IMG/VR virus record: IMGVR_UViG_3300003321_000638
Location: 1-37,293 of that record
Source of the DNA: a virus
Reading direction: 5' to 3' (one strand)
DNA: 37,293 nt
The position numbers were made by a program, and so were the translations under genes. Positions 1-37,293 of the stretch are shown here, piece by piece. The notes under the pieces are model-generated. The model made no database searches and was not told where the DNA came from. It was given only the letters and a program-made list of their open reading frames with translations. Numbering within the stretch: the first letter of the stretch is position 1; the number at the start of each line of letters is the position of its first letter.

Positions 1-61
1 CCGTAGCGCAGCCTGGAGCGCAGCCTGGAGCGCAGCCCGTAGCGCAGCCTGGAGCGCAGAC
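1..61 (+). repeat. Tandem 12-base repeat, left edge (coding)
   Basis: Units GCAGCCTGGAGC (Ala-Ala-Trp-Ser) and GCAGCCCGTAGC (Ala-Ala-Arg-Ser) are repeated head to tail, in frame with the DUF6745 reading frame that continues to base 676. The same units lie at 37264-37293. The contig was therefore probably broken or circularised inside this low-complexity array, and the true copy number may be higher than shown. Confidence 0.9.
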
Positions 62-676
62 GTCGATCACATGATCGCAATCTGGTTGCCGTTCGTGGAT
101 GCCTATGACGCGGGGCTATGGCTTTTCTGGATATGCGGAACGGAGGTCGTAGCTGTGCCGCGTCCTGCAATGCAGATCGTCGCCAATCGGCTGCACTGCG
201 ATTCCGGCCCTGCTGTTCAGTGGCCGGATGGTCATAAGTTTTGGTTTTGGCGAGGCGTCAACGTCGACGAGCGCCTCATTATCAATCCGGACAGCTATAC
301 CCAGGAGGATATTCGTTCGGAGAAAAACAGCGAAGTATCGCGAGCGATCGCGGAGCGCCTTGGGTGGGATCGGTACCTCGCGGCATTAGGAACCAACACG
401 CTCGACAAATGGACGGATCCCAAAACGGGGCTTAGGTACGAACTACTCGATACGAAAGAGCGACGTGGTGAGCAGCAACCACGCTGGCTGCGCATGCAAT
501 CCCCAACGCTGCATGATGGGACGCAGCCACATTATCTCGAGCCCGTGGATCCGCGATTAGTATCTGCGCGTGCTGCTCGCGCCTGGCAATTGTTCGATTG
601 GGATCCAAACGACCCGGACGGTTTAGTCGGCCATTGTAATCGCAAACCGAATCTCGAATTTATTCAGGAGACATAG
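2..676 (+). CDS. DUF6745-type repeat protein, C-terminal part (gene begins at 37066)
   Basis: The frame is open from base 2 with no stop upstream. An ATG exists at 71, but the Ala-Ala-Trp-Ser repeats before it are in frame and match the repeats ending the gene at 37066, so 71 is unlikely to be the real start. The domain after the repeats has the family's hallmarks: a LHCDSGPAVQWPDG stretch followed by a Trp-rich strand (FWFWRGV), then NSEVSRAIAERLGWDRYL and a C-terminal ARAARAWQLF segment. DUF6745 proteins commonly carry long AAR/AAW repeats before this domain; their biochemical role is unknown. The next gene starts 3 bases after the stop, so this is the first half of a co-transcribed pair. 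Family assignment is from recalled sequence pattern, not a search. Confidence 0.8.
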   Translation, partial: RSAAWSAAWSAARSAAWSADVDHMIAIWLPFVDAYDAGLWLFWICGTEVVAVPRPAMQIVANRLHCDSGPAVQWPDGHKFWFWRGVNVDERLIINPDSYTQEDIRSEKNSEVSRAIAERLGWDRYLAALGTNTLDKWTDPKTGLRYELLDTKERRGEQQPRWLRMQSPTLHDGTQPHYLEPVDPRLVSARAARAWQLFDWDPNDPDGLVGHCNRKPNLEFIQET

Positions 677-679
677 ATC

Positions 680-1009
680 ATGGCAAAGAAGAAAGAGCTT
701 TGGAGACACGGGGACGTCGTGCTCGAGCGAGTCGAGGATGGTTGCGAGCTGGGTAGTCCGATCGAATCCAAACGTAGTGTTGTGCTCGCGGAGGGCGAGG
801 CGACCGGACATTCGCATCGTATTGATTCGTCGTTCGACGCGAGACTCTATTCGGATCCATCAAACGACAATGCAAAAATACTCGTGCTGGTGCGACCGTC
901 CGATCTGATGCACGAGGAACACCAAACCATCCAACTGCCTCCTGGAAAATACCGCGTGCGCATCAAAAGACAATATAGCCCGGAGGGTTGGGAGAATGTT
1001 GCGGATTGA
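680..1009 (+). CDS. Small DUF6745-companion protein
   Basis: 109 residues, starting 3 bases after the DUF6745 stop; GGAGAC lies upstream of the ATG. The sequence runs from an RHGDVVLERV strand through LAEGEATGHSHRI and LMHEEHQTIQLPPGKYRV to a final YSPEGWENVAD. This pattern belongs to a small family I recall as a frequent neighbour of DUF6745 genes in Actinobacteria and Myxococcota. The conserved histidines (HSHRI, HEEH) could bind metal, but no activity is known. Close spacing suggests the two proteins act together. It overlaps the next gene by 14 bases. Confidence 0.8.
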   Translation: MAKKKELWRHGDVVLERVEDGCELGSPIESKRSVVLAEGEATGHSHRIDSSFDARLYSDPSNDNAKILVLVRPSDLMHEEHQTIQLPPGKYRVRIKRQYSPEGWENVAD

Positions 1010-1364
1010 GGTGGGTGGAGAGAGCGTGTGGCTGTTGAAGAAAGGTCGCGGTTATCTCATGAGCATCGATGATTTGGTGTTGGATGTGGACCGATGGTCG
1101 AGTCGTCAACGTCATGCCATTCGATGGACGGATCGCGGTTCGTGTGAACTGGCAAGGCTGGACTTTGGAGGCCGCGTGGTGAAGCTCGTTCCAAAGAGGG
1201 CTAAATGGTGGGTGGTGAAATATCACTCTGCATATATGTGGCCAGGGCATTACAGCTTTAGTCAGAAGGCGTCATATAAATGGACAAATAGGACGGCCGC
1301 TCAGACTTATGCTAAGCATTGCCGTGGCCGCGTGGTGAAGCTCGTGCCGAAAAGGAAGGGATGA
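996..1364 (+). CDS. Unknown protein with a duplicated GRVVKLVPKR peptide
   Basis: 122 residues, not recognised. ATG 996 overlaps the previous gene by 14 bases and follows a GGAGGG/GGGAGA purine stretch, so it is probably translated. The peptide GRVVKLVPKR occurs twice (about residues 58-67 and 111-120), encoded by a perfect 20-base direct repeat at 1170-1189 and 1326-1345. The stretch between is rich in Trp, Tyr, Lys and His (WWVVKYHSAYMWPGHYSF), suggesting a compact basic domain. The stop overlaps the Thg1-like start (ATGA), so the genes are probably translationally coupled. Confidence 0.65.
   Translation: MLRIEVGGESVWLLKKGRGYLMSIDDLVLDVDRWSSRQRHAIRWTDRGSCELARLDFGGRVVKLVPKRAKWWVVKYHSAYMWPGHYSFSQKASYKWTNRTAAQTYAKHCRGRVVKLVPKRKG
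1170..1345 (+). repeat. 20-base direct repeat within one gene
   Basis: GGCCGCGTGGTGAAGCTCGT occurs at 1170-1189 and 1326-1345, 156 bases apart (an exact multiple of 3). It encodes the duplicated GRVVKLVPKR peptide, so recombination between the copies would delete 52 codons in frame. Confidence 0.85.
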
Positions 1365-2086
1365 AACCTGAGAACGCAATGCGTGGAGATCCATTGGGGG
1401 ATCGAATGAAGCGATACGAGGATGCATATAGGATGCATTTGCCTCGCAGGCTCCCCGTCATTATTCGAATAGATGGGAAGTCATTTCATACATTTACCGC
1501 TAAAATGGATCGTCCATTCGATACGAGGCTCATGAGCATGCTGGATTCTGCAGCCACGAGTCTATGTGTCGAAATTCAAGGAGCGCAGATCGCCTACATA
1601 CAGTCGGATGAAATCTCGATCCTAGTTCATAACTATAAGCACCTGAACACGGATGCATATTTCGACAACAATCTGCAAAAAATATGCAGTATTTCGGCGT
1701 CCATCGCGAGTTCATTCATGAGTCGAGTCTTTGGTCGGACTGTCCTATTTGATGCAAGGGCGTTTGTGTTGCCGGAGGCCGAGGTGTGCAACTATTTTAT
1801 TTGGCGCCAGCAGGATTGGACGAGAAACAGCCTGCAGATGATGGCGCGGTCTCTCTATTCTCATCACGAACTAGAGGGTAAAAATTCCTCGGATCTTCAT
1901 GAACTGATTTATGCGGCCGGCCAGAACTGGAACAACATTGAAACCAGGTTCAAGCGAGGACGCTGCATACATCGGAGCGCCATAGACGAAATCTGGGTAG
2001 TCGATCATGAGATCCCCATTTTTAGGGACGACCGCAGCTATATCGAAAAATGGTTGGCCGTCGAATCGGAGGAGTCCGCAGCATGA
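1361..2086 (+). CDS. Thg1-like protein (3'-5' RNA nucleotidyltransferase, TLP)
   Basis: Thg1-family enzymes add nucleotides to RNA in the 3'-to-5' direction. Thg1-like proteins (TLPs) of bacteria and archaea repair 5'-truncated tRNAs by templated addition; eukaryotic Thg1 adds G-1 to tRNA-His. The 241 residues show IIRIDGKSFHTFT (metal Asp38), QSDEIS (metal Asp83, Glu84), LFDARAF (131-134) and the bacterial-type block NYFIWRQQDWTRNS (144-157), then HHELEGKNSSDLHELI and KRGRCI. All catalytic carboxylates are present and the length is normal. The start at 1361 is chosen because it overlaps the upstream stop as ATGA and follows AAGGAAGG; ATG 1379 is an alternative. It lies between the DUF6745 operon and xis/int, in the predicted PR transcript. 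Substrate in this phage is unknown. Confidence 0.93.
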   Translation: MKPENAMRGDPLGDRMKRYEDAYRMHLPRRLPVIIRIDGKSFHTFTAKMDRPFDTRLMSMLDSAATSLCVEIQGAQIAYIQSDEISILVHNYKHLNTDAYFDNNLQKICSISASIASSFMSRVFGRTVLFDARAFVLPEAEVCNYFIWRQQDWTRNSLQMMARSLYSHHELEGKNSSDLHELIYAAGQNWNNIETRFKRGRCIHRSAIDEIWVVDHEIPIFRDDRSYIEKWLAVESEESAA

Positions 2087-2448
2087 GCGCGGCGGAGAAG
2101 ATCGAGGATCAATACCTCATCACCGCTCCTGAGGCGGCGAAGCTCCTACGCGTGTGCCGCAACACGTTTGAGAAAAATGTAAGGCCCCATATCCGGGTCA
2201 TGAAAATAGGGAAGTGCGTTCGGTTCTATCGGGAAGAGGTGCTGGCATGGGCGGAGCGTCAGGGGGATGGTCCCTCCGTTGGCGAGGCGTACTCGCCACG
2301 GTTCGAATCTCGCACAAGGGCAAGCGCTCCGAGTATGGGCTCGGTCGTCACGCTCTCCCCACGGGCGAAAGAGATACTGAAGGAGCTCGAAAAGCCGCCG
2401 CGCATAAGTACGCGGAGATTATTTCCGGTAGGTACAGGCGGCATATAG
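2083..2448 (+). CDS. HTH protein, candidate excisionase/integrase-linked regulator
   Basis: ATG 2083 overlaps the Thg1-like stop (ATGA) and follows GGAGGAG. Residues about 9-55 form a MerR/excisionase-type helix-turn-helix (LITAPEAAKLLRVCRNTFEKNV, then a RFYREEVLAWAE wing end), the fold of helix-turn-helix domain 17 proteins that often precede phage integrases. The C-terminal half (after about residue 60) looks unconserved and overlaps the integrase frame by about 200 bases, which is unusually long. Role as Xis is inferred from fold and position only. Confidence 0.7.
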   Translation: MSAAEKIEDQYLITAPEAAKLLRVCRNTFEKNVRPHIRVMKIGKCVRFYREEVLAWAERQGDGPSVGEAYSPRFESRTRASAPSMGSVVTLSPRAKEILKELEKPPRISTRRLFPVGTGGI

Positions 2449-3356
2449 GAATATCCGCTCCTGTCCCTCTCAAAAGCGCTATAGCTTTATGGGTGGAAGC
2501 CATGGCGGGCTCCTATGCTCCCCGTAATCTTTCCAACATGAAAATGTATGGGAGGAGATGGGCGGAGTTTTTCGAGGGGTCGTTTGCGAGAATCCACGAG
2601 CCTGGGATCGGGGACTACTCAAGAGCCCGGCTGCTGCAGGTACTCAAGAAAACGCTCCGCAAGGAATTGTCTGCGTTGCGTGGGTTTCTGGGGTGGTGCG
2701 TGGAACGTGGGTGGCTGGACAAGGTCCCCGAGTTCCCGAAGCTTCCGAAAAAAGCAACGGGGGTCAGATCGGGCCCGCACCGCGCGGAGCCCGTTGAGGT
2801 CACCGAAGGGCAGGTGAGGCGCTTCCTCGCAAAGCTGCCTGCATGGAGTGAGCGAAGTCCGAGAGGGGAAAATCAGAAACGATTCCCAGTTCGTCTTTAT
2901 TTTGAGTTTCTCTGGGAAACGGGATTGCGCCCCGTGACGGTGGCGACGCTGTCGGTACCCGAACATTATCTGCGAGGGGCGAAGGTTTTGCGGATCACGG
3001 ACGCGTCGGACAAGGCCCGTTTCGGCAGAGAGCTACCGCTGAGCAATCGGGCTGCGGCGATCTTGGAAGAGTTGTGCCCGCCATCAGGGCCCATCTTCGG
3101 ACGCCATAGCTATCGAACGTACCTCTGGAAGGCCCGTGAAGCCGCCAAGATGCCCCAGGGCTTTTCGACCTACGACCTACGCCACGGAAGGGCGACTGAC
3201 CTGCTCGAGAAGAGTGGGGGTAACCTTCTCGGCGTCGCGTATCTCCTTGGACATAAACATACGACAACCACCGACAAATATTTGAAAGCGAGTGTGCGAC
3301 ATGCCGAGTCCGTACTTCGATCCAGTGGGGGCAAAACCGGGGGCAAGCGTGGTTGA
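2247..3356 (+). CDS. int: Tyrosine-family site-specific integrase
   Basis: Phage integrase that recombines attP with the host attB. Numbered from ATG 2247 (369 aa): arm-binding-like N-terminus (RWRGVLATVRISHKGKRSEYGL), SAM-like core-binding domain (about 70-160), catalytic domain (about 185-350) with Arg228 (ETGLRPV), box II YDLRHGRAT (Arg312; the usual first His is Tyr309), LLGHKHT (His336) and nucleophile Tyr345 (DKYLKA). The start is uncertain: the frame is open back to ATG 2214, and both lie inside the preceding HTH gene. The stop is 6 bases from a tRNA-Leu-like att core, as expected for an integrase gene abutting its own att site. No recognisable ribosome site precedes either start, so coupling to the upstream gene is likely. 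Confidence 0.93.
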   Translation: MGGASGGWSLRWRGVLATVRISHKGKRSEYGLGRHALPTGERDTEGARKAAAHKYAEIISGRYRRHIGISAPVPLKSAIALWVEAMAGSYAPRNLSNMKMYGRRWAEFFEGSFARIHEPGIGDYSRARLLQVLKKTLRKELSALRGFLGWCVERGWLDKVPEFPKLPKKATGVRSGPHRAEPVEVTEGQVRRFLAKLPAWSERSPRGENQKRFPVRLYFEFLWETGLRPVTVATLSVPEHYLRGAKVLRITDASDKARFGRELPLSNRAAAILEELCPPSGPIFGRHSYRTYLWKAREAAKMPQGFSTYDLRHGRATDLLEKSGGNLLGVAYLLGHKHTTTTDKYLKASVRHAESVLRSSGGKTGGKRG

Positions 3357-3362
3357 ACTACG

Positions 3363-3420
3363 TGCGAAGGAGGGGAATCGAACCCCTACACCCTTTCGGG
3401 CACCAGAACCTGAATCTGGC
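3363..3420 (-). other. attP: Predicted attP core: 3' part of tRNA-Leu(CAG)
   Basis: On the minus strand this 58-base stretch contains a complete anticodon arm (stem CCAGA/TCTGG, loop TTCAGGT, anticodon CAG), a long variable arm with CCC/GGG pairing typical of class II tRNAs, a T-arm (AGGGG TTCGATT CCCCT) and the 3' acceptor strand CCTTCGC plus discriminator A. No D-arm or 5' acceptor strand follows, so it is not a whole tRNA gene. A tRNA 3' fragment beside int is the classic attP core: on integration it would restore the host tRNA gene. Phage-type genes on both sides suggest unintegrated attP rather than attL or attR. Confidence 0.85.
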
Positions 3421-8262: not shown

Positions 8263-8428
8263 ATATCTCCACGAGCTTCAGCGCCTGGCCTATCAGGGCT
8301 CTATCCCTCCCATGAGCAAGCAGCAGATTCGGGATATTCAAGAAAAGCTCGCCGAGGATGATATTCACCTGACCGAGGAGGAGATCCTCGAATGGACAGC
8401 AAAGGCCATGGATGAGGGATCCGTTTGA
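8243..8428 (+). CDS. Small helical protein before TerL (61 aa)
   Basis: Alternative starts at 8249 and 8252. The core QQIRDIQEKLAEDDIHLTEEEILEW resembles the small protein at 6332-6529, suggesting two related helical proteins flanking this block. It overlaps terL by 17 bases. Function unknown. Confidence 0.55.
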   Translation: MGMMRRKYLHELQRLAYQGSIPPMSKQQIRDIQEKLAEDDIHLTEEEILEWTAKAMDEGSV

Positions 8429-9794
8429 CCTCTTTGTCCGGGGGCAGATCCTCGCCTCCCAGCCTACCCGTAAAGGCCCTGCCCGGTTCATTCCTCATAA
8501 GCCTCACGCCAAGCAGAAGGAATTCCTCAAGCTCGATTGCCTGGAGGCCCTCTATGGCGGGGCGGCAGGAGGCGGCAAGAGCGACGCATTGCTCATGGCC
8601 GCCCTTCAATACGTCGATATCCCCAGCTATTCGGCCTTGCTCCTCAGGCGAAGCTATACGGACCTGTCGCTACCCGGGGCTATTATGGACCGGTCGCATG
8701 ACTGGCTCGAGGGCTCAGGAGCCCTTTGGAATGATCGGGATAAGCGCTGGACGTTTCCCAGCGGCGCCACCCTCACCTTCGGGTATCTAGATAATGAGCG
8801 AGACAAATACCGTTACCAAAGTGCGGAGTTCCAGTTCATCGGATTCGATGAACTTACTCAGTTCCCTGAGGGCTGGTACGCATATCTCTTGTCGAGGCTG
8901 CGACGTCTGCAAGATTCTCGAATCCCGCTTCGGGCCCGTAGCGCATCCAACCCGGGAGGAGTTGGACATGATTGGGTACTACGTAGGTTCATATCTCAGG
9001 AGAATGAGGGCCATCGATTTGTGCCTGCAACACTTGCCGACAATCCTTTTATCGATCAGGTCTCATATGCGCAGACACTCCAAAATCTCGATCCGACCAC
9101 GCGGAAACAACTCTTGGAAGGTCTATGGATCCGGGATAGCGGAGGCTTGGTTTACCCAACGCCGGAAATCTCTATCATCGAAAAAGCCCCGGAATGTTCG
9201 GACCATATCCTTGGCATCGACTACGGATTCACCGACTCCACGGCGTTCTGCATCCTCGGATGGCGAGAACACGACAAAACGGTCTACATCCTCGAAAGCT
9301 TCAAGCAAGCGGGGCTCACGCCGAGCGCGGCGGCGGAAATAGCCCTCGACCTCGAGAAAAGGTATCGCTTTGCCCAGATCGTGGGGGATATTGGCGGCCT
9401 AGGTAAAGGCTATGCCGAGGAAGCTCGCTCCCGATTCGGCCTGCCCATCATTCCTGCCGATAAGAACAACAAGAGAGGTTACATCGACCTACTCAATGGG
9501 GACCTCGCCAATGGCCATCTCAAGATAGTCAGAGGGTCCAATGCTGATCTTATCCAGGAGATGAGGGAACTTCCCTGGGATAAGGAGCGAAAGCATCCGG
9601 AGCCAGGGTTCGAGGACCATCTATGCGATGCCATGCTCTATGGCTGGAGGGCATGCCGAGCCTTTTTGGCTGAGCCCAAAGCCGAGCAGCCTGCCTATGG
9701 GACATCCGAATATTTCGCCATGGAGAGGAAACGGATCGAGGATCAGATCGAGGCGGACTACCTCAAATCGCAAAAAGAGTGGTGGGACGAATAA
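8412..9794 (+). CDS. terL: Terminase large subunit
   Basis: The motor and nuclease that cuts and pumps DNA into the prohead. 460 residues. ATPase: Walker A GGAAGGGKS (49-57), Walker B FQFIGFDEL with catalytic Asp146/Glu147, coupling motif RARSASNPGG (174-183). RNase H-like nuclease: ILGIDYGFTD (Asp270), VGDIGG (Asp326), DHLCDAMLYG (Asp402, Asp406). All key residues are present. It starts at ATG 8412 inside the preceding gene. The headful (pac) versus cos type cannot be decided from the sequence alone. Confidence 0.95.
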   Translation: MRDPFDLFVRGQILASQPTRKGPARFIPHKPHAKQKEFLKLDCLEALYGGAAGGGKSDALLMAALQYVDIPSYSALLLRRSYTDLSLPGAIMDRSHDWLEGSGALWNDRDKRWTFPSGATLTFGYLDNERDKYRYQSAEFQFIGFDELTQFPEGWYAYLLSRLRRLQDSRIPLRARSASNPGGVGHDWVLRRFISQENEGHRFVPATLADNPFIDQVSYAQTLQNLDPTTRKQLLEGLWIRDSGGLVYPTPEISIIEKAPECSDHILGIDYGFTDSTAFCILGWREHDKTVYILESFKQAGLTPSAAAEIALDLEKRYRFAQIVGDIGGLGKGYAEEARSRFGLPIIPADKNNKRGYIDLLNGDLANGHLKIVRGSNADLIQEMRELPWDKERKHPEPGFEDHLCDAMLYGWRACRAFLAEPKAEQPAYGTSEYFAMERKRIEDQIEADYLKSQKEWWDE

Positions 9795-10035: not shown

Positions 10036-11886
10036 TTGCAAAACCTCAACACCGACGGTCGTTGGTGGGTCAAATCTGCGGGTGAAGAGCCTCACGATAG
10101 GCTGATTCGAGTCGTTCAAAGAATCGATTCCAATCAGAGCTATCGCAAGGAGGAAGATCTCCGGCACGCCAAGCTCTATAGCAATTCTCCCATTCTAGGC
10201 CTGACTCCTAGGACATTTACCCCGTCCTCCAGGCGAGGAGGGACGGACAGGCTCTCTCTCAATGTCGTCAAGAACATGGTGGGGGCCGTTGTCGCCAAGA
10301 TCTCCAAGAATAAGCCGAAAGCGACCTTCCTCACCCAGGGTGGGGACCAGGAACTACAGCTCAAAGCCAAGCGCCTTGAAAAGTTCGTCGAGGGGCAATT
10401 CTATGAGTCGGATCTATATGACCTAGCCCCGAAGATATTCCGGGACGGGTGCATCTTCGGTACAGGATGCCTCAAGATCTTCGCCTCGGAAGGGAAGATC
10501 GTCTGCGAACGCGTCTTTCCTTGGGAACTCCGCATCGATGACCAGGAGTCAATGTATGGAGAGCCGTGCTCTCTCTACCAGCGACGATATGTTGACCGTC
10601 TCCGGATGCAGGAGCTTTTCCCAGAGCATGCGGACGAATTAGAACGCACTCGGCAAGATCGGGAAGATATCCAATTCGGATATGATTCCACCGCTGACCA
10701 AGTCCTCGTTACCGAGGGTTGGCATCGGCCGAGCGGTAAGAACGCCACGGACGGCCGGCATGTCATTGCCGTGGAGAATTGCACGCTGCTCGATGAGGAG
10801 TGGAACAAAGGGTTCCCGTTCATCTTTATCCGGTGGAATGAGGATACTGCTGGCTTCTGGGGCGTGGGGCTTGCCCAGGAGCTCATGGGCATCCAGCTCG
10901 AAATCAATAAGCTCCTAAGAGAGATTCAGAGAGCCCATCACCTTCTTGGCAAAGCCCATTGGATGGTAGATGCCGCCAGCAAGGTCATCTCCGCCCATCT
11001 CGATAACGATACGGGCACGATCATTCGGTATTCGGGAGGGCTAAGGCCCGAGGTTTATACGCCCCAGGTCGTTCCATCCGAGGTCTACCAACACCTCTGG
11101 GCACTCTATCAGAAAGCCTATGAGGTCACGGGTATCTCGCAACTCTCGGCCCAAAGCCAGATACCCGCGGGCCTTCAGCAGGCAAGCGGAAAGGCGCTTC
11201 AAACCTATGACGACATTGAGACCGAGCGCTTCATCGTCGTAGGGCGAACCTATGAAAAGCTCTTTCTGGATGCCGCGAAACTGATGATCTCGCTCGCCAA
11301 GGAGCTCGCGGAAGAAGGAGAATATAAGGTCAAAGCACCCTCTCAGAAGTTCATTCAAATGATCGACTGGAAGGATGTGAACCTCGAGGAAGATGAATAT
11401 GTGATGCGCATCTTCCCGACGTCCGCTCTGGCCGATGAGCCGGCGATGCGAATGGCTCAGGTTCAGAATCTTGCAAATGCCGGCTGGATTGCTCCCGAAG
11501 ACGCAAAGAGGCTGCTCGACTTCCCCGACCTTGAGGGAGTCTCGAATCTCGAGACGGCGTCCTATGACCTCATCATGGACATCATCGAGCAGATTCGGGA
11601 CCATGGGCGATATATCTCTCCCGAGCCCTTCATGGATCTGCCGAAGTCGATAGCCATGATGCAGATGGCCTATCTAAGAGCCAAGATCGACAACGTCCCA
11701 GAACAGAGGCTCGCCATGATGCGTCAGTTCATGGTCGACGCCAAGGATCTCCTAAATCAGCCGGATAGCACTCAGCCTCCGGCTCCTCCGCAACCCATAG
11801 CACCAACCATTACGCCTGGGCCTATCCCCGGAGGGGCTCCTCCCTCCCCATCTCCTCCTCCTCCGGGGATGCCCATGGCGGCCTAA
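10036..11886 (+). CDS. Portal protein
   Basis: Dodecameric ring at the capsid vertex through which DNA passes. 616 residues, in the size range of podovirus portals. Recognisable stretches are NVVKNMVGAVVAKISKNKPK near residue 75, a DLAPKIFRDGCIFGTGCLKIF segment, VFPWELRIDD, QELMGIQLEINKLLREIQRAHH (stem helix) and SGKALQTYDDIETERF. The C-terminus is a Pro-rich tail. The start is TTG 10036, abutting the upstream TAA, with GGGGGA before it; no in-frame ATG is near, so TTG initiation is the best choice. Confidence 0.9.
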   Translation: MQNLNTDGRWWVKSAGEEPHDRLIRVVQRIDSNQSYRKEEDLRHAKLYSNSPILGLTPRTFTPSSRRGGTDRLSLNVVKNMVGAVVAKISKNKPKATFLTQGGDQELQLKAKRLEKFVEGQFYESDLYDLAPKIFRDGCIFGTGCLKIFASEGKIVCERVFPWELRIDDQESMYGEPCSLYQRRYVDRLRMQELFPEHADELERTRQDREDIQFGYDSTADQVLVTEGWHRPSGKNATDGRHVIAVENCTLLDEEWNKGFPFIFIRWNEDTAGFWGVGLAQELMGIQLEINKLLREIQRAHHLLGKAHWMVDAASKVISAHLDNDTGTIIRYSGGLRPEVYTPQVVPSEVYQHLWALYQKAYEVTGISQLSAQSQIPAGLQQASGKALQTYDDIETERFIVVGRTYEKLFLDAAKLMISLAKELAEEGEYKVKAPSQKFIQMIDWKDVNLEEDEYVMRIFPTSALADEPAMRMAQVQNLANAGWIAPEDAKRLLDFPDLEGVSNLETASYDLIMDIIEQIRDHGRYISPEPFMDLPKSIAMMQMAYLRAKIDNVPEQRLAMMRQFMVDAKDLLNQPDSTQPPAPPQPIAPTITPGPIPGGAPPSPSPPPPGMPMAA

Positions 11887-35114: not shown

Positions 35115-35207
35115 TAGAAAATATTTGCGTCAGCTAATTTTCATGACAACTTGAACAAAATGAGGGGATCTGCGATCTATCGGTCGGTCAGTCGAAGGGA
35201 GGGCGTA

Positions 35208-35735
35208 ATGAAGAAGCTATTAATTGCTGGCGCAATCTCCATGATTTTCGGTTGTTCCGGCTCGACAACTCAGCCGTCTACAACGGGGGATGCGGGCCAA
35301 GACGGCTCCTTGGCGGATGCTGCTCAGGATTCAGCCTCTGCATGTGTGCCTGCGAATGGGGATTGCCGGGCGAACGCGAATGAATGCTGCAACGGCGCCG
35401 TTTGCGTCTTTGATGCCAACAATCCGTCCAGGGCTATTTGTGCGGACACATGTCTAAATGATTCTCAATGCGCGAGCGGATGCTGCACGATTTTGGTCCA
35501 GGGCACATCTGCAGTATGCGCACCATCGAGATATTGTGCCGGGTCATGTGCACCTCCGGGTGCAGATTGCACCTCTCAGACCTGCTGCCCCAATTCTTTA
35601 TGTGTTGTTTCTACTGTTACCGGGACCACATGCGCAGCGAGATGTGCGATCAATTCGCAATGCATCAGCAATTGCTGTGCGCCCCTACAAAACACGGGCG
35701 ATTTAGTTTGCTCTCCGCCACAATTCTGCCCGTGA
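35208..35735 (+). CDS. Cysteine-rich secreted lipoprotein, probable lysogenic-conversion gene
   Basis: 175 residues from ATG 35208, 5 bases after AAGGGAGGG. Signal peptide MKKLLIAGAISMIFGC with lipobox IFGC, an Asp/Ala/Gly/Ser linker (about 18-45), then about 20 Cys in repeats of the pattern DCR...NECCNGAVC and QCASGCC. This is the style of host surface lipoproteins in Myxococcota, not of virion proteins. Lying between PL and the repressor but transcribed in the opposite direction to both, it is probably a moron expressed by lysogens. Role unknown: adhesion, receptor masking or protease inhibition are possibilities. Confidence 0.8.
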   Translation: MKKLLIAGAISMIFGCSGSTTQPSTTGDAGQDGSLADAAQDSASACVPANGDCRANANECCNGAVCVFDANNPSRAICADTCLNDSQCASGCCTILVQGTSAVCAPSRYCAGSCAPPGADCTSQTCCPNSLCVVSTVTGTTCAARCAINSQCISNCCAPLQNTGDLVCSPPQFCP

Positions 35736-35824: not shown

Positions 35825-36376
35825 TCATCCTCCTCCTCCCGCGCGCGTTTTCCGTAAATACTTATTAATTTTAGGCAGAGGGGGGGGCGCTGAATCTCGA
35901 TTTGAGACGAGCTGGGACGCCTGAATCATCGCTACATCGAGCAATTTTGCGAAAATGTCCAGCTTCATAATTAGCTCCTGTTCGTTCGGCAATTCGTCCA
36001 AATTAGACAGATGCACTCTAATCGCCGCAATTGCCTCGGGGGACCATCTGCCAGGATATTTTTTCGCGAGGCGGTCTATCGCGTGTTTTGTAGCAGGATC
36101 TAATCTATGGGATCGTAGGCTTCCGGTAGCAATGTCCTCGAGTTCCGAGGGACTAAGCCCCCAATGCTTTGACAGTTTGCGCACGACCTCTTGGCCAGGA
36201 AGTTTATTGGGGTCGTTTTTTAGATTCGAAAGATGCGCAGTTGAGATCCCTGTCTTCTCCGAGAGTAGGGAATTATTCCCGCGAGACGCGTTGATTTCCG
36301 CGATCAATCTCTGCTTCACATACGTAACAATCTGGTGCCATACATTATCCGACTCCATGGCAGGTAGGATAGACAT
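35825..36376 (-). CDS. CI-like phage repressor (XRE HTH)
   Basis: 183 residues from ATG 36376; ATG 36358 (MESDNVW) is also possible. The HTH NSLLSEKTGISTAHLSNLKNDPNKL (about 35-60) is a clear XRE type, with the GLSPSELEDIATG tail common to repressors. The C-terminal half is helical and does not show a LexA/S24 Ser-Lys protease, so RecA-stimulated self-cleavage is not expected. It is divergent from the Cro-like gene with an operator 8 bases upstream of the start. Confidence 0.8.
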   Translation of the reverse strand: MSILPAMESDNVWHQIVTYVKQRLIAEINASRGNNSLLSEKTGISTAHLSNLKNDPNKLPGQEVVRKLSKHWGLSPSELEDIATGSLRSHRLDPATKHAIDRLAKKYPGRWSPEAIAAIRVHLSNLDELPNEQELIMKLDIFAKLLDVAMIQASQLVSNRDSAPPPLPKINKYLRKTRAGGGG

Positions 36377-36383
36377 ATAAAAA

Positions 36384-36397
36384 CTAGCTCGAGCTAG
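36384..36397. promoter_or_regulatory. Operator palindrome CTAGCTCGAGCTAG
   Basis: A perfect 14-bp palindrome between the repressor start (36376) and the -35 box of the Cro-like gene. It shares the AGCT-centred arms of the PL operator. Binding here would regulate the repressor's own promoter and PR. Confidence 0.75.
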
Positions 36398-36405
36398 AAA
36401 CGGGC

Positions 36406-36434
36406 TTGACAGCATTATTTACTCTAGCTAGAGA
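36406..36434 (+). promoter_or_regulatory. Predicted PR promoter with operator CTCTAGCTAGAG
   Basis: TTGACA (36406-36411), 17-base spacer, TAGAGA (36429-36434, a weak -10). The perfect 12-bp palindrome 36422-36433 overlaps the -10, so repressor or Cro binding would block it. The -10 ends only 6 bases before ATG 36441, so the message may be leaderless. Confidence 0.7.
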
Positions 36435-36440
36435 TAGCTC

Positions 36441-36716
36441 ATGGCTAGGAGGATTTGTGCCGGCTCCGAGAAGCTGGAGGAATTTATTTCCGACAACGGT
36501 CTTACGAAGTTGGCTGCGGCGAAATACCTCGGGGTCAGTGACCCAACGATTTATGATTGGGTAACGGGGATCAAACGGCCAAAATCCCACCATCGTCGAG
36601 CGATAGAGATTTGGACGAATGGAAAAGTGCCCGCAGAATCGTGGCTGTTTGACGATGAGAAAAGGTCGATCTCGATCGTAAAACCGTTCCGCAAACGCAC
36701 CGGTACCGACGGTTAG
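36441..36716 (+). CDS. Cro-like HTH regulator
   Basis: 91 residues. The HTH LTKLAAAKYLGVSDPTIYDWVTGIKRP (about 20-46) is of the Cro/YdaS type; the rest is a short helical tail with WLFDDEKRS. First gene of the rightward early transcript, divergent from the repressor. ATG 36441 lacks a good ribosome site; AGGAGG lies just inside the gene. Assignment as Cro is by position and fold. Confidence 0.75.
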   Translation: MARRICAGSEKLEEFISDNGLTKLAAAKYLGVSDPTIYDWVTGIKRPKSHHRRAIEIWTNGKVPAESWLFDDEKRSISIVKPFRKRTGTDG

Positions 36717-36809: not shown

Positions 36810-37069
36810 ACATCTGGAATTTGCCGGGATGTGAGAATGATCCGTGCACTCCTATCCTGAAGGAGCTCGTGGAATATTGCGGAGATCTCAATGCCGACGA
36901 GCTGAGGGTAGTGACTGCGGTGGCTGAGAGGATGTCACGAGGCCGAAAAGAATATGGCCCGTTGGATCTATCCATCGATATTCGCAATTTTAAACACGAG
37001 GGAGCACAGGAGCTCCTAGATTTTGTGGCCTACGAGATCATGCAACGACTGAAGGAAAATAGATCATGA
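36806..37069 (+). CDS. All-alpha NTP pyrophosphatase-like (MazG-fold) small protein
   Basis: 87 residues from ATG 36806. The pattern VAERMSRGRKEYGPLDLSIDIRNFKHEGAQELLDFVAYEIMQRL resembles short phage proteins of the all-alpha NTP-PPase type, with the KEYG...D and E..ELLD..xY elements that would hold metal. These enzymes hydrolyse (d)NTPs to monophosphates or related nucleotides. The motif is partial, so activity is uncertain. ATGA overlaps at its end with the DUF6745 gene. Confidence 0.55.
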   Translation: MNIWNLPGCENDPCTPILKELVEYCGDLNADELRVVTAVAERMSRGRKEYGPLDLSIDIRNFKHEGAQELLDFVAYEIMQRLKENRS

Positions 37070-37293
37070 CAGATATCGACATAATAGGCCCCGAGGCTCG
37101 CGCGGTTATCGAGCGACTGGGGAACATCGATCGTGCGAATCCACGTATCGATAAGCCCGCTGTCGAGGATGCAATTCGACGGCACCTCTCTGCGTTGAAT
37201 TTGGAGCCCATGCCGATTCGATGGGTAGTCGATGCCACTGATGGATATTTATCCGTTGCGCGCGCAGCCCGTAACGCAGCCTGGAGCGCAGCC
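37066..37293 (+). CDS. DUF6745-type repeat protein, N-terminal part (continues at base 2)
   Basis: ATG 37066 overlaps the upstream stop (ATGA). 76 codons run open to the edge: a helical and acidic start (MTDIDIIGPEARAVIERLG), then PIRWVVDATDGYLSVARAAR and the repeats AARNAAWSAA. Direct joining of base 37293 to base 1 gives a stop (gcc ccg tag); dropping a single C restores the repeat phase and a frame open to 676. So the two pieces are almost certainly one gene of about 300 or more residues. Confidence 0.8.
   Translation, partial: MTDIDIIGPEARAVIERLGNIDRANPRIDKPAVEDAIRRHLSALNLEPMPIRWVVDATDGYLSVARAARNAAWSAA
37264..37293 (+). repeat. Tandem 12-base repeat, right edge
   Basis: GCAGCCCGTAAC, GCAGCCTGGAGC and a partial GCAGCC. 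They match the left-edge array, so this is one coding repeat tract interrupted by the end of the sequence. Confidence 0.9.

What the first reader, a model, noticed from the sequence alone, without database searches (positions are those of the whole stretch)
1361..2086. Intact Thg1-like 3'-5' RNA polymerase on a temperate phage
All three catalytic carboxylates and the bacterial TLP block are present. TLPs repair tRNAs truncated at the 5' end. A phage copy in the early rightward operon suggests repair of tRNA damaged by host defence RNases or by the phage itself, or maintenance of a special tRNA.
Basis: partly seen in the sequence, partly recalled or inferred. Interest (0 to 1): 0.75.

Follow-up and report, generated by a model that had tools for sequence, protein, structure and literature searches.

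The report
tRNA 5'-end repair enzyme on phage
A small temperate phage carries an intact gene for an enzyme that builds RNA backwards (3'-to-5') to mend the front ends of tRNAs; such phage genes are already known, almost always in much larger phages, so the novelty is this small carrier without tRNA genes, not the enzyme.

Summary
Window 1361-2086 (+) encodes a 241-aa Thg1-like protein (TLP), closest among solved structures to Bacillus thuringiensis TLP (E 9e-62). All active-site residues checked are kept, and the predicted model (pLDDT 90.5) matches 4KGM (E 1e-28). The contig is probably a complete circular genome of about 37.3 kb: both ends fall in one tandem repeat inside one ORF. CI, Cro, xis, int and an attP made of the 3' part of tRNA-Leu(CAG) mark it as temperate. 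TLP lies just before xis and int in a tightly coupled Cro-to-int operon. Relatives with the same head genes lack it, so it looks like cargo.

Phage TLPs are a known kind (PHROG 4717; 127 phage records; 583 or more IMG/VR stretches; papers since 2013). Listed named-phage hosts were all at least 88 kb. A temperate example exists already (Omegavirus Klein). New here is a small, tRNA-less carrier.

Templated 5'-end repair of host tRNA is the best-supported activity. "Damaged by defence RNases" is untested, and the phage lacks the 5' kinase found within 6 kb at 47 of 76 sampled bacterial TLP loci. tRNA-His G-1 addition and editing of phage tRNAs are disfavoured.

The parts
1361..2086 (+). TLP gene, 241 aa Thg1-like 3'-5' RNA polymerase; starts in an ATGA overlap with the upstream ORF and ends in an ATGA overlap with xis
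2083..2448 (+). xis-like helix-turn-helix protein (HTH_17, excisionase PHROGs)
2214..3356 (+). tyrosine integrase (PF00589; PHROG 1); true start probably inside this ORF
3363..3419 (-). attP core: 3' part of a tRNA-Leu(CAG) gene, anticodon stem to discriminator base, no 5' half; sits just past int, as does a tRNA-His-like 3' fragment in relative G007
   Evidence: sequence; no full tRNA by ARAGORN or Rfam; G007 comparison
996..1364 (+). small unknown ORF directly upstream of TLP, 4-nt overlap
680..1009 (+). unknown protein, PHROG 27831
71..676 (+). DUF6745 gene, 3' part; its 5' part is 37066-37293, so the contig ends meet inside this gene
37066..37293 (+). 5' part of the DUF6745 gene, ending in the same tandem repeat that opens the contig
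36441..36716 (+). Cro-like small helix-turn-helix ORF, first gene of the rightward operon
   Evidence: sequence reading and position opposite CI
35825..36415 (-). CI-like repressor (transcriptional regulator PHROG 8), divergent from Cro
8412..9794 (+). terminase large subunit, used to find relatives that lack TLP

Best explanation
The gene makes an active Thg1-like protein carried as cargo between the Cro-like gene and the xis-int pair of a small temperate phage. It would activate the 5' phosphate of a tRNA that has lost nucleotides from its acceptor stem and add the missing ones 3'-to-5', using the 3' acceptor strand as template, so keeping host tRNAs usable during early infection or prophage induction. 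Shown by computation: the intact gene and active site, the fold, the operon, and absence from relatives. Inferred: biochemical activity, a tRNA substrate, host origin of the tRNA, and benefit to the phage.
For: Family membership and complete active site. Bacterial TLPs tested in vitro prefer 5'-truncated tRNAs of many kinds (PMC3701042, PMC6471195). No phage tRNA gene, so a tRNA substrate must be the host's. Successive ORF gaps of about -4, +3, -14, -4, -4 nt indicate one coupled transcript. Head-module relatives G004, G005, G007 lack TLP; G007 has one unrelated ORF of about 0.7 kb at that place. RNA end-healing genes lie near TLP elsewhere: a PNKP-like kinase within 6 kb at 47 of 76 bacterial loci, usually directly downstream; a full Pnkp in phage Klein; an RNA ligase annotation in Weasels2.
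Against: No assay. No close homologue (best 57% identity), so selection on this copy cannot be measured directly. The window has no P-loop kinase; its only Walker A ORF is the terminase, so ends left as 5'-OH would need a host kinase. The relatives without TLP are fragments or of unproven completeness. I know of no defence nuclease that trims the 5' acceptor end, so the source of damage is unnamed.
Confidence: 0.55

Rival explanations
1. Counter-defence: the enzyme specifically reverses 5'-end damage made by a host anti-phage or toxin RNase.
For: Accessory position, absent from relatives; link of TLP with end-healing kinases. Iyer et al. place Thg1 among jumbo-phage RNA repair systems (PMC7824862).
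Against: Well-known tRNA-targeting defences cut the anticodon loop (own knowledge), which TLP alone cannot mend; no kinase in this phage and no recognised ligase; host not identified.
Confidence: 0.2
2. Non-tRNA substrate: the enzyme extends or caps 5' ends of another RNA (mRNA, small RNA).
For: The review leaves non-tRNA substrates open for TLPs (PMC6471195).
Against: The close relative BtTLP acts on tRNA; all active-site residues checked are kept.
Confidence: 0.12
3. tRNA-His maturation: adds or restores G-1, as eukaryotic Thg1 does.
For: Database name 'tRNA-His guanylyltransferase'.
Against: Closest to TLPs, not eukaryotic Thg1 (9e-62 against 5.7e-11 for human). Bacterial tRNA-His genes encode G-1 (PMC6471195); 5 of 6 tRNA-His genes beside TLPs do too. 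No tRNA-His gene in the window.
Confidence: 0.06
4. Maturation or 5' editing of phage-encoded tRNAs.
For: Some other TLP phages carry tRNA arrays near the gene.
Against: No tRNA gene here; in TLP virus loci 90 tRNAs show mismatches at acceptor position 1 only in 2 initiator-Met-like tRNAs and none at 2-3.
Confidence: 0.03
5. Passenger or artefact: decaying gene, or host DNA joined to a phage contig.
For: TLP has the lowest GC of the genes measured, 0.48 against 0.54 for the genome, fitting fairly recent arrival.
Against: Full-length, catalytic columns intact, coupled on both sides, inside a contig whose ends close on themselves.
Confidence: 0.04

Closest known systems
Bacterial Thg1-like protein BtTLP of Bacillus thuringiensis (PDB 4KGK, 4KGM)
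   Same: About 45% identity over full length, same fold, same active-site residues
   Different: Phage-borne, outside the Bacillota chromosomal clade, no kinase partner in the phage
Phage TLP family PHROG 4717 (for example Bacillus phages Bc431v3, BM10, Goe8; Bacillus phage G; Caulobacter and Erwinia jumbo phages)
   Same: Same family, E 6.3e-83; 127 phage records; reported in papers
   Different: Listed named phages are 88-550 kb; this one is 37 kb, temperate, with no tRNA genes
Omegavirus mycobacteriophages (Klein, 112 kb)
   Same: TLP on a phage with a tyrosine integrase, hence probably temperate
   Different: Three times larger, TLP three genes from a full polynucleotide kinase-phosphatase and about 13 kb from int
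Archaeal TLP with tRNA (5AXM, 5AXN)
   Same: Same fold, 25% identity
   Different: More distant

Membership tests
Thg1/TLP superfamily | Thg1 catalytic domain (PF04446) above curated cut-off | tested here: met
   95.8 bits against cut-off 29.2
Thg1/TLP superfamily | Three metal/active-site carboxylates (BtTLP D30, D75, E76) | tested here: met
   D38, D83, E84; invariant in 154 sequences
Thg1/TLP superfamily | Activation and transfer residues (S74, N154, R28, K99, R131 in BtTLP numbering) | tested here: met
   S82, N156, R36, K107, R133
Thg1/TLP superfamily | Palm-like Thg1 fold | tested here: met
   Model pLDDT 90.5; 4KGM E 1.2e-28; all 32 matches with E <= 0.001 are Thg1 or TLP
Bacterial-type TLP rather than eukaryotic Thg1 | Closer to TLPs than to Thg1 in sequence and structure | tested here: met
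   BtTLP 9e-62 against human Thg1 5.7e-11
Bacterial-type TLP rather than eukaryotic Thg1 | Templated 3'-5' addition, preference for 5'-truncated tRNA | not testable with these tools
   Needs purified protein
Thg1/TLP superfamily | Oligomeric state of the family | not tested
   Only a monomer was modelled
Temperate phage | Integrase, excisionase-like gene, repressor and tRNA-type attP | tested here: met
Temperate phage | Integrated copy in a host with attL and attR | tested here: inconclusive
   No host or provirus found with the attP sequence
TLP plus PNKP-like kinase operon of bacteria | Adjacent P-loop polynucleotide kinase | tested here: not met
   Only Walker A ORF in the window is the terminase

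The most novel reading that the evidence does not exclude
A small temperate phage uses a lone TLP, with the host supplying a 5' kinase, to mend host tRNAs whose acceptor 5' ends are trimmed by an as yet undescribed defence or stress RNase.
Probability: 0.15. Interest if true: 0.7.

Novelty: new member of a known kind. Interest (0 to 1): 0.38.

Why it matters
The in vivo job of bacterial and phage TLPs is an open question. A small temperate phage with no tRNA genes and no other recognised RNA-repair gene is a cleaner test case than a jumbo phage with dozens of translation genes: any effect of deleting TLP should concern host RNAs. The gene's place as swappable cargo also predicts a host-dependent benefit. 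If activity is confirmed it would narrow the substrate to host tRNA; it would not add a new enzyme class.

Tried and rejected
Host search by the attP tRNA-Leu fragment: none of 7 TLP genomes, none of 395 genomes of the phylum of G053, none in viral contigs; host unknown. A myxobacterial host was guessed from a Cys-rich lipoprotein but not shown. Link between TLP and the tRNA attachment site: rejected, because the core starts at the anticodon stem, so integration leaves the host's own 5' half in place, and relative G007 has the same int and tRNA-fragment arrangement without TLP. Phage-tRNA editing and tRNA-His roles: tested on tRNAs beside other TLPs and disfavoured; a first count with a fixed stem register was wrong and was replaced. 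Shared neighbours between the window and other TLP loci: no significant match, only weak chance-level ones. DNA-level relatives among phage records: none. In the first tree the window fell in a virus-only group (SH-aLRT 82); a careful tree kept it outside the starred chromosomal clades, but its own branch has weak support (55/86).

Full report
Observation. ORF 1361-2086 on the + strand gives a 241-residue protein without stops. It is a Thg1-family protein by Pfam (2.5e-27), PHROG 4717 (6.3e-83) and PDB sequence search, where the best match by far is B. thuringiensis TLP, 4KGK, 9e-62; human Thg1 is at 5.7e-11. On an alignment of 154 TLPs the catalytic positions described for BtTLP (PMC3701042) that I could map are all kept: E20, R36, D38, T46, S82, D83, E84, K107, R133, R149, N156, M160. 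Only 3 of 55 highly conserved columns differ, none of them catalytic. AlphaFold2 gives pLDDT 90.5 and Foldseek places 4KGM first with E 1.2e-28. This is not chance.

The carrier. The record is a 37,293-base IMG/VR virus contig. Its right end (37066-37293) and left end (1-676) are the two parts of one DUF6745 gene, both ending in the same tandem repeat; the frames agree if one base of the repeat overlaps. The simplest reading is a complete circular or circularly permuted genome broken at the repeat; the record shows no terminal repeat as held, so this stays an inference. The genome has terminase, portal, major head protein, RecT-like and exonuclease genes, a CI-like repressor, a Cro-like ORF, xis and a tyrosine integrase. 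Just past int, on the - strand at 3363-3419, lies the 3' part of a tRNA-Leu(CAG) gene from anticodon stem to discriminator, without a 5' half; neither ARAGORN nor Rfam sees a whole tRNA. The relative G007 has the same arrangement with a tRNA-His-like 3' fragment. I read both as attP.

Operon and cargo status. From Cro to int the ORFs follow each other on one strand; after the second ORF the successive gaps are about -4, +3, -14, -4 and -4 nt, so TLP is very probably co-transcribed and translationally coupled. Relatives found through terminase (53-64% identity) and head protein (62%) lack TLP anywhere in their records. In G007, which shares head genes, xis and int with the window, one unrelated ORF of about 0.7 kb stands between the Cro-like gene and xis, where the window has about 2.7 kb with five genes including TLP. 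TLP is therefore accessory cargo. It has the lowest GC of the measured genes, 0.48 against 0.54 overall. These relatives are not proven complete.

Distribution and tree. 127 phage records hold a TLP by tblastn; every listed one from a named phage is at least 88 kb (not all 127 were listed). A 4.2-kb metagenomic fragment is the only small record seen. In IMG/VR 583 stretches encode relatives. Of 50 TLP records searched, 3 had a tyrosine recombinase over the Pfam cut-off, among them phage Klein, so a temperate TLP phage is not new. In trees the window lies with viral sequences and outside the well-supported Bacillota, Bacteroidota-rich and Kiritimatiellota chromosomal clades. The position inside the viral part is weakly supported (55/86), and myxobacterial TLPs were not sampled well (2 of 118 genomes of the phylum of G053 had a TLP).

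Mechanism. Characterised TLPs add nucleotides 3'-to-5' to 5'-truncated tRNAs of many kinds, using the 3' acceptor strand as template (PMC3701042, PMC6471195). Two alternatives could be tested indirectly. If phage TLPs matured phage tRNAs by 5' editing, tRNAs near them should have mismatches at acceptor positions 1-3: among 90 such tRNAs there are two at position 1, both tRNA-Met of initiator type, where that mismatch is normal, and none at 2-3. If they supplied G-1 of tRNA-His, those genes should lack it: 5 of 6 encode it. The window phage has no tRNA gene at all, so a tRNA substrate would be the host's.

A recurrent partner. At 47 of 76 bacterial TLP loci a P-loop protein falls in one cluster within 6 kb. 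At most of these it is a protein of about 145 aa starting a few bases downstream of TLP, mainly in Paenibacillus and relatives, with cases in Bacteroidota and Kiritimatiellota. A few cluster members are longer metallophosphatase or ATPase proteins drawn in by single linkage, so the strict count is somewhat lower. The small protein matches AAA_33, and its only PDB matches are mammalian-type polynucleotide kinase-phosphatases, 1.3e-9. Phage Klein has a full kinase plus HAD phosphatase three genes from TLP. This supports a general role in RNA end healing: the kinase would supply the 5' phosphate that TLP activates. I found no paper naming this pairing, but only open-access text was searched. The window phage has no such kinase, so it would act on 5'-phosphate ends or rely on the host.

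Verdict. Phage TLPs were described in 2013, in 2018 and in the 2021 jumbo-phage survey. I file this as a new member of a known kind with an unusual carrier.

Noticed in passing
L047:10756-11190, L046:9558-9998, L071:9558-10004 and other genome loci: Bacterial chromosomal TLP genes sit beside a small polynucleotide-kinase-like gene in several phyla (47 of 76 loci by loose clustering), suggesting a two-gene RNA 5'-end healing module.
   Followed up: partly
L168:9128-9904, L018, L019, L020: Some Clostridia and viral TLPs have a calcineurin-like metallophosphoesterase as the nearest gene.
   Followed up: no
L022, L026, L029, L032: TLP contigs filed under Bacteroidetes or Cytophagales genomes carry dense unusual tRNA arrays and may be phage contigs binned with, or lying in, those genomes.
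   Followed up: no
window 1-60 and 37266-37293: Tandem repeat around cgcagcctggagcgcagcc inside the DUF6745 gene where the contig was cut; repeat number probably collapsed by assembly.
   Followed up: partly
window 996-1364: Small ORF upstream of TLP contains two copies of a GRVVKLVPKR motif, an internal duplication of unknown meaning; a weak relative occurs in G005 (L190:6868-7068) without TLP.
   Followed up: no
window 35151-35735: Cys-rich lipoprotein-like ORF between the exonuclease and repressor regions, resembling lysogenic-conversion cargo; it looks myxobacterial to the eye but this was not tested.
   Followed up: no
L188 downstream of int (about 10640-10800): Relative G007 appears to integrate at a tRNA-His-type site, the window phage at tRNA-Leu, with related integrases (about 40% identity).
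   Followed up: partly
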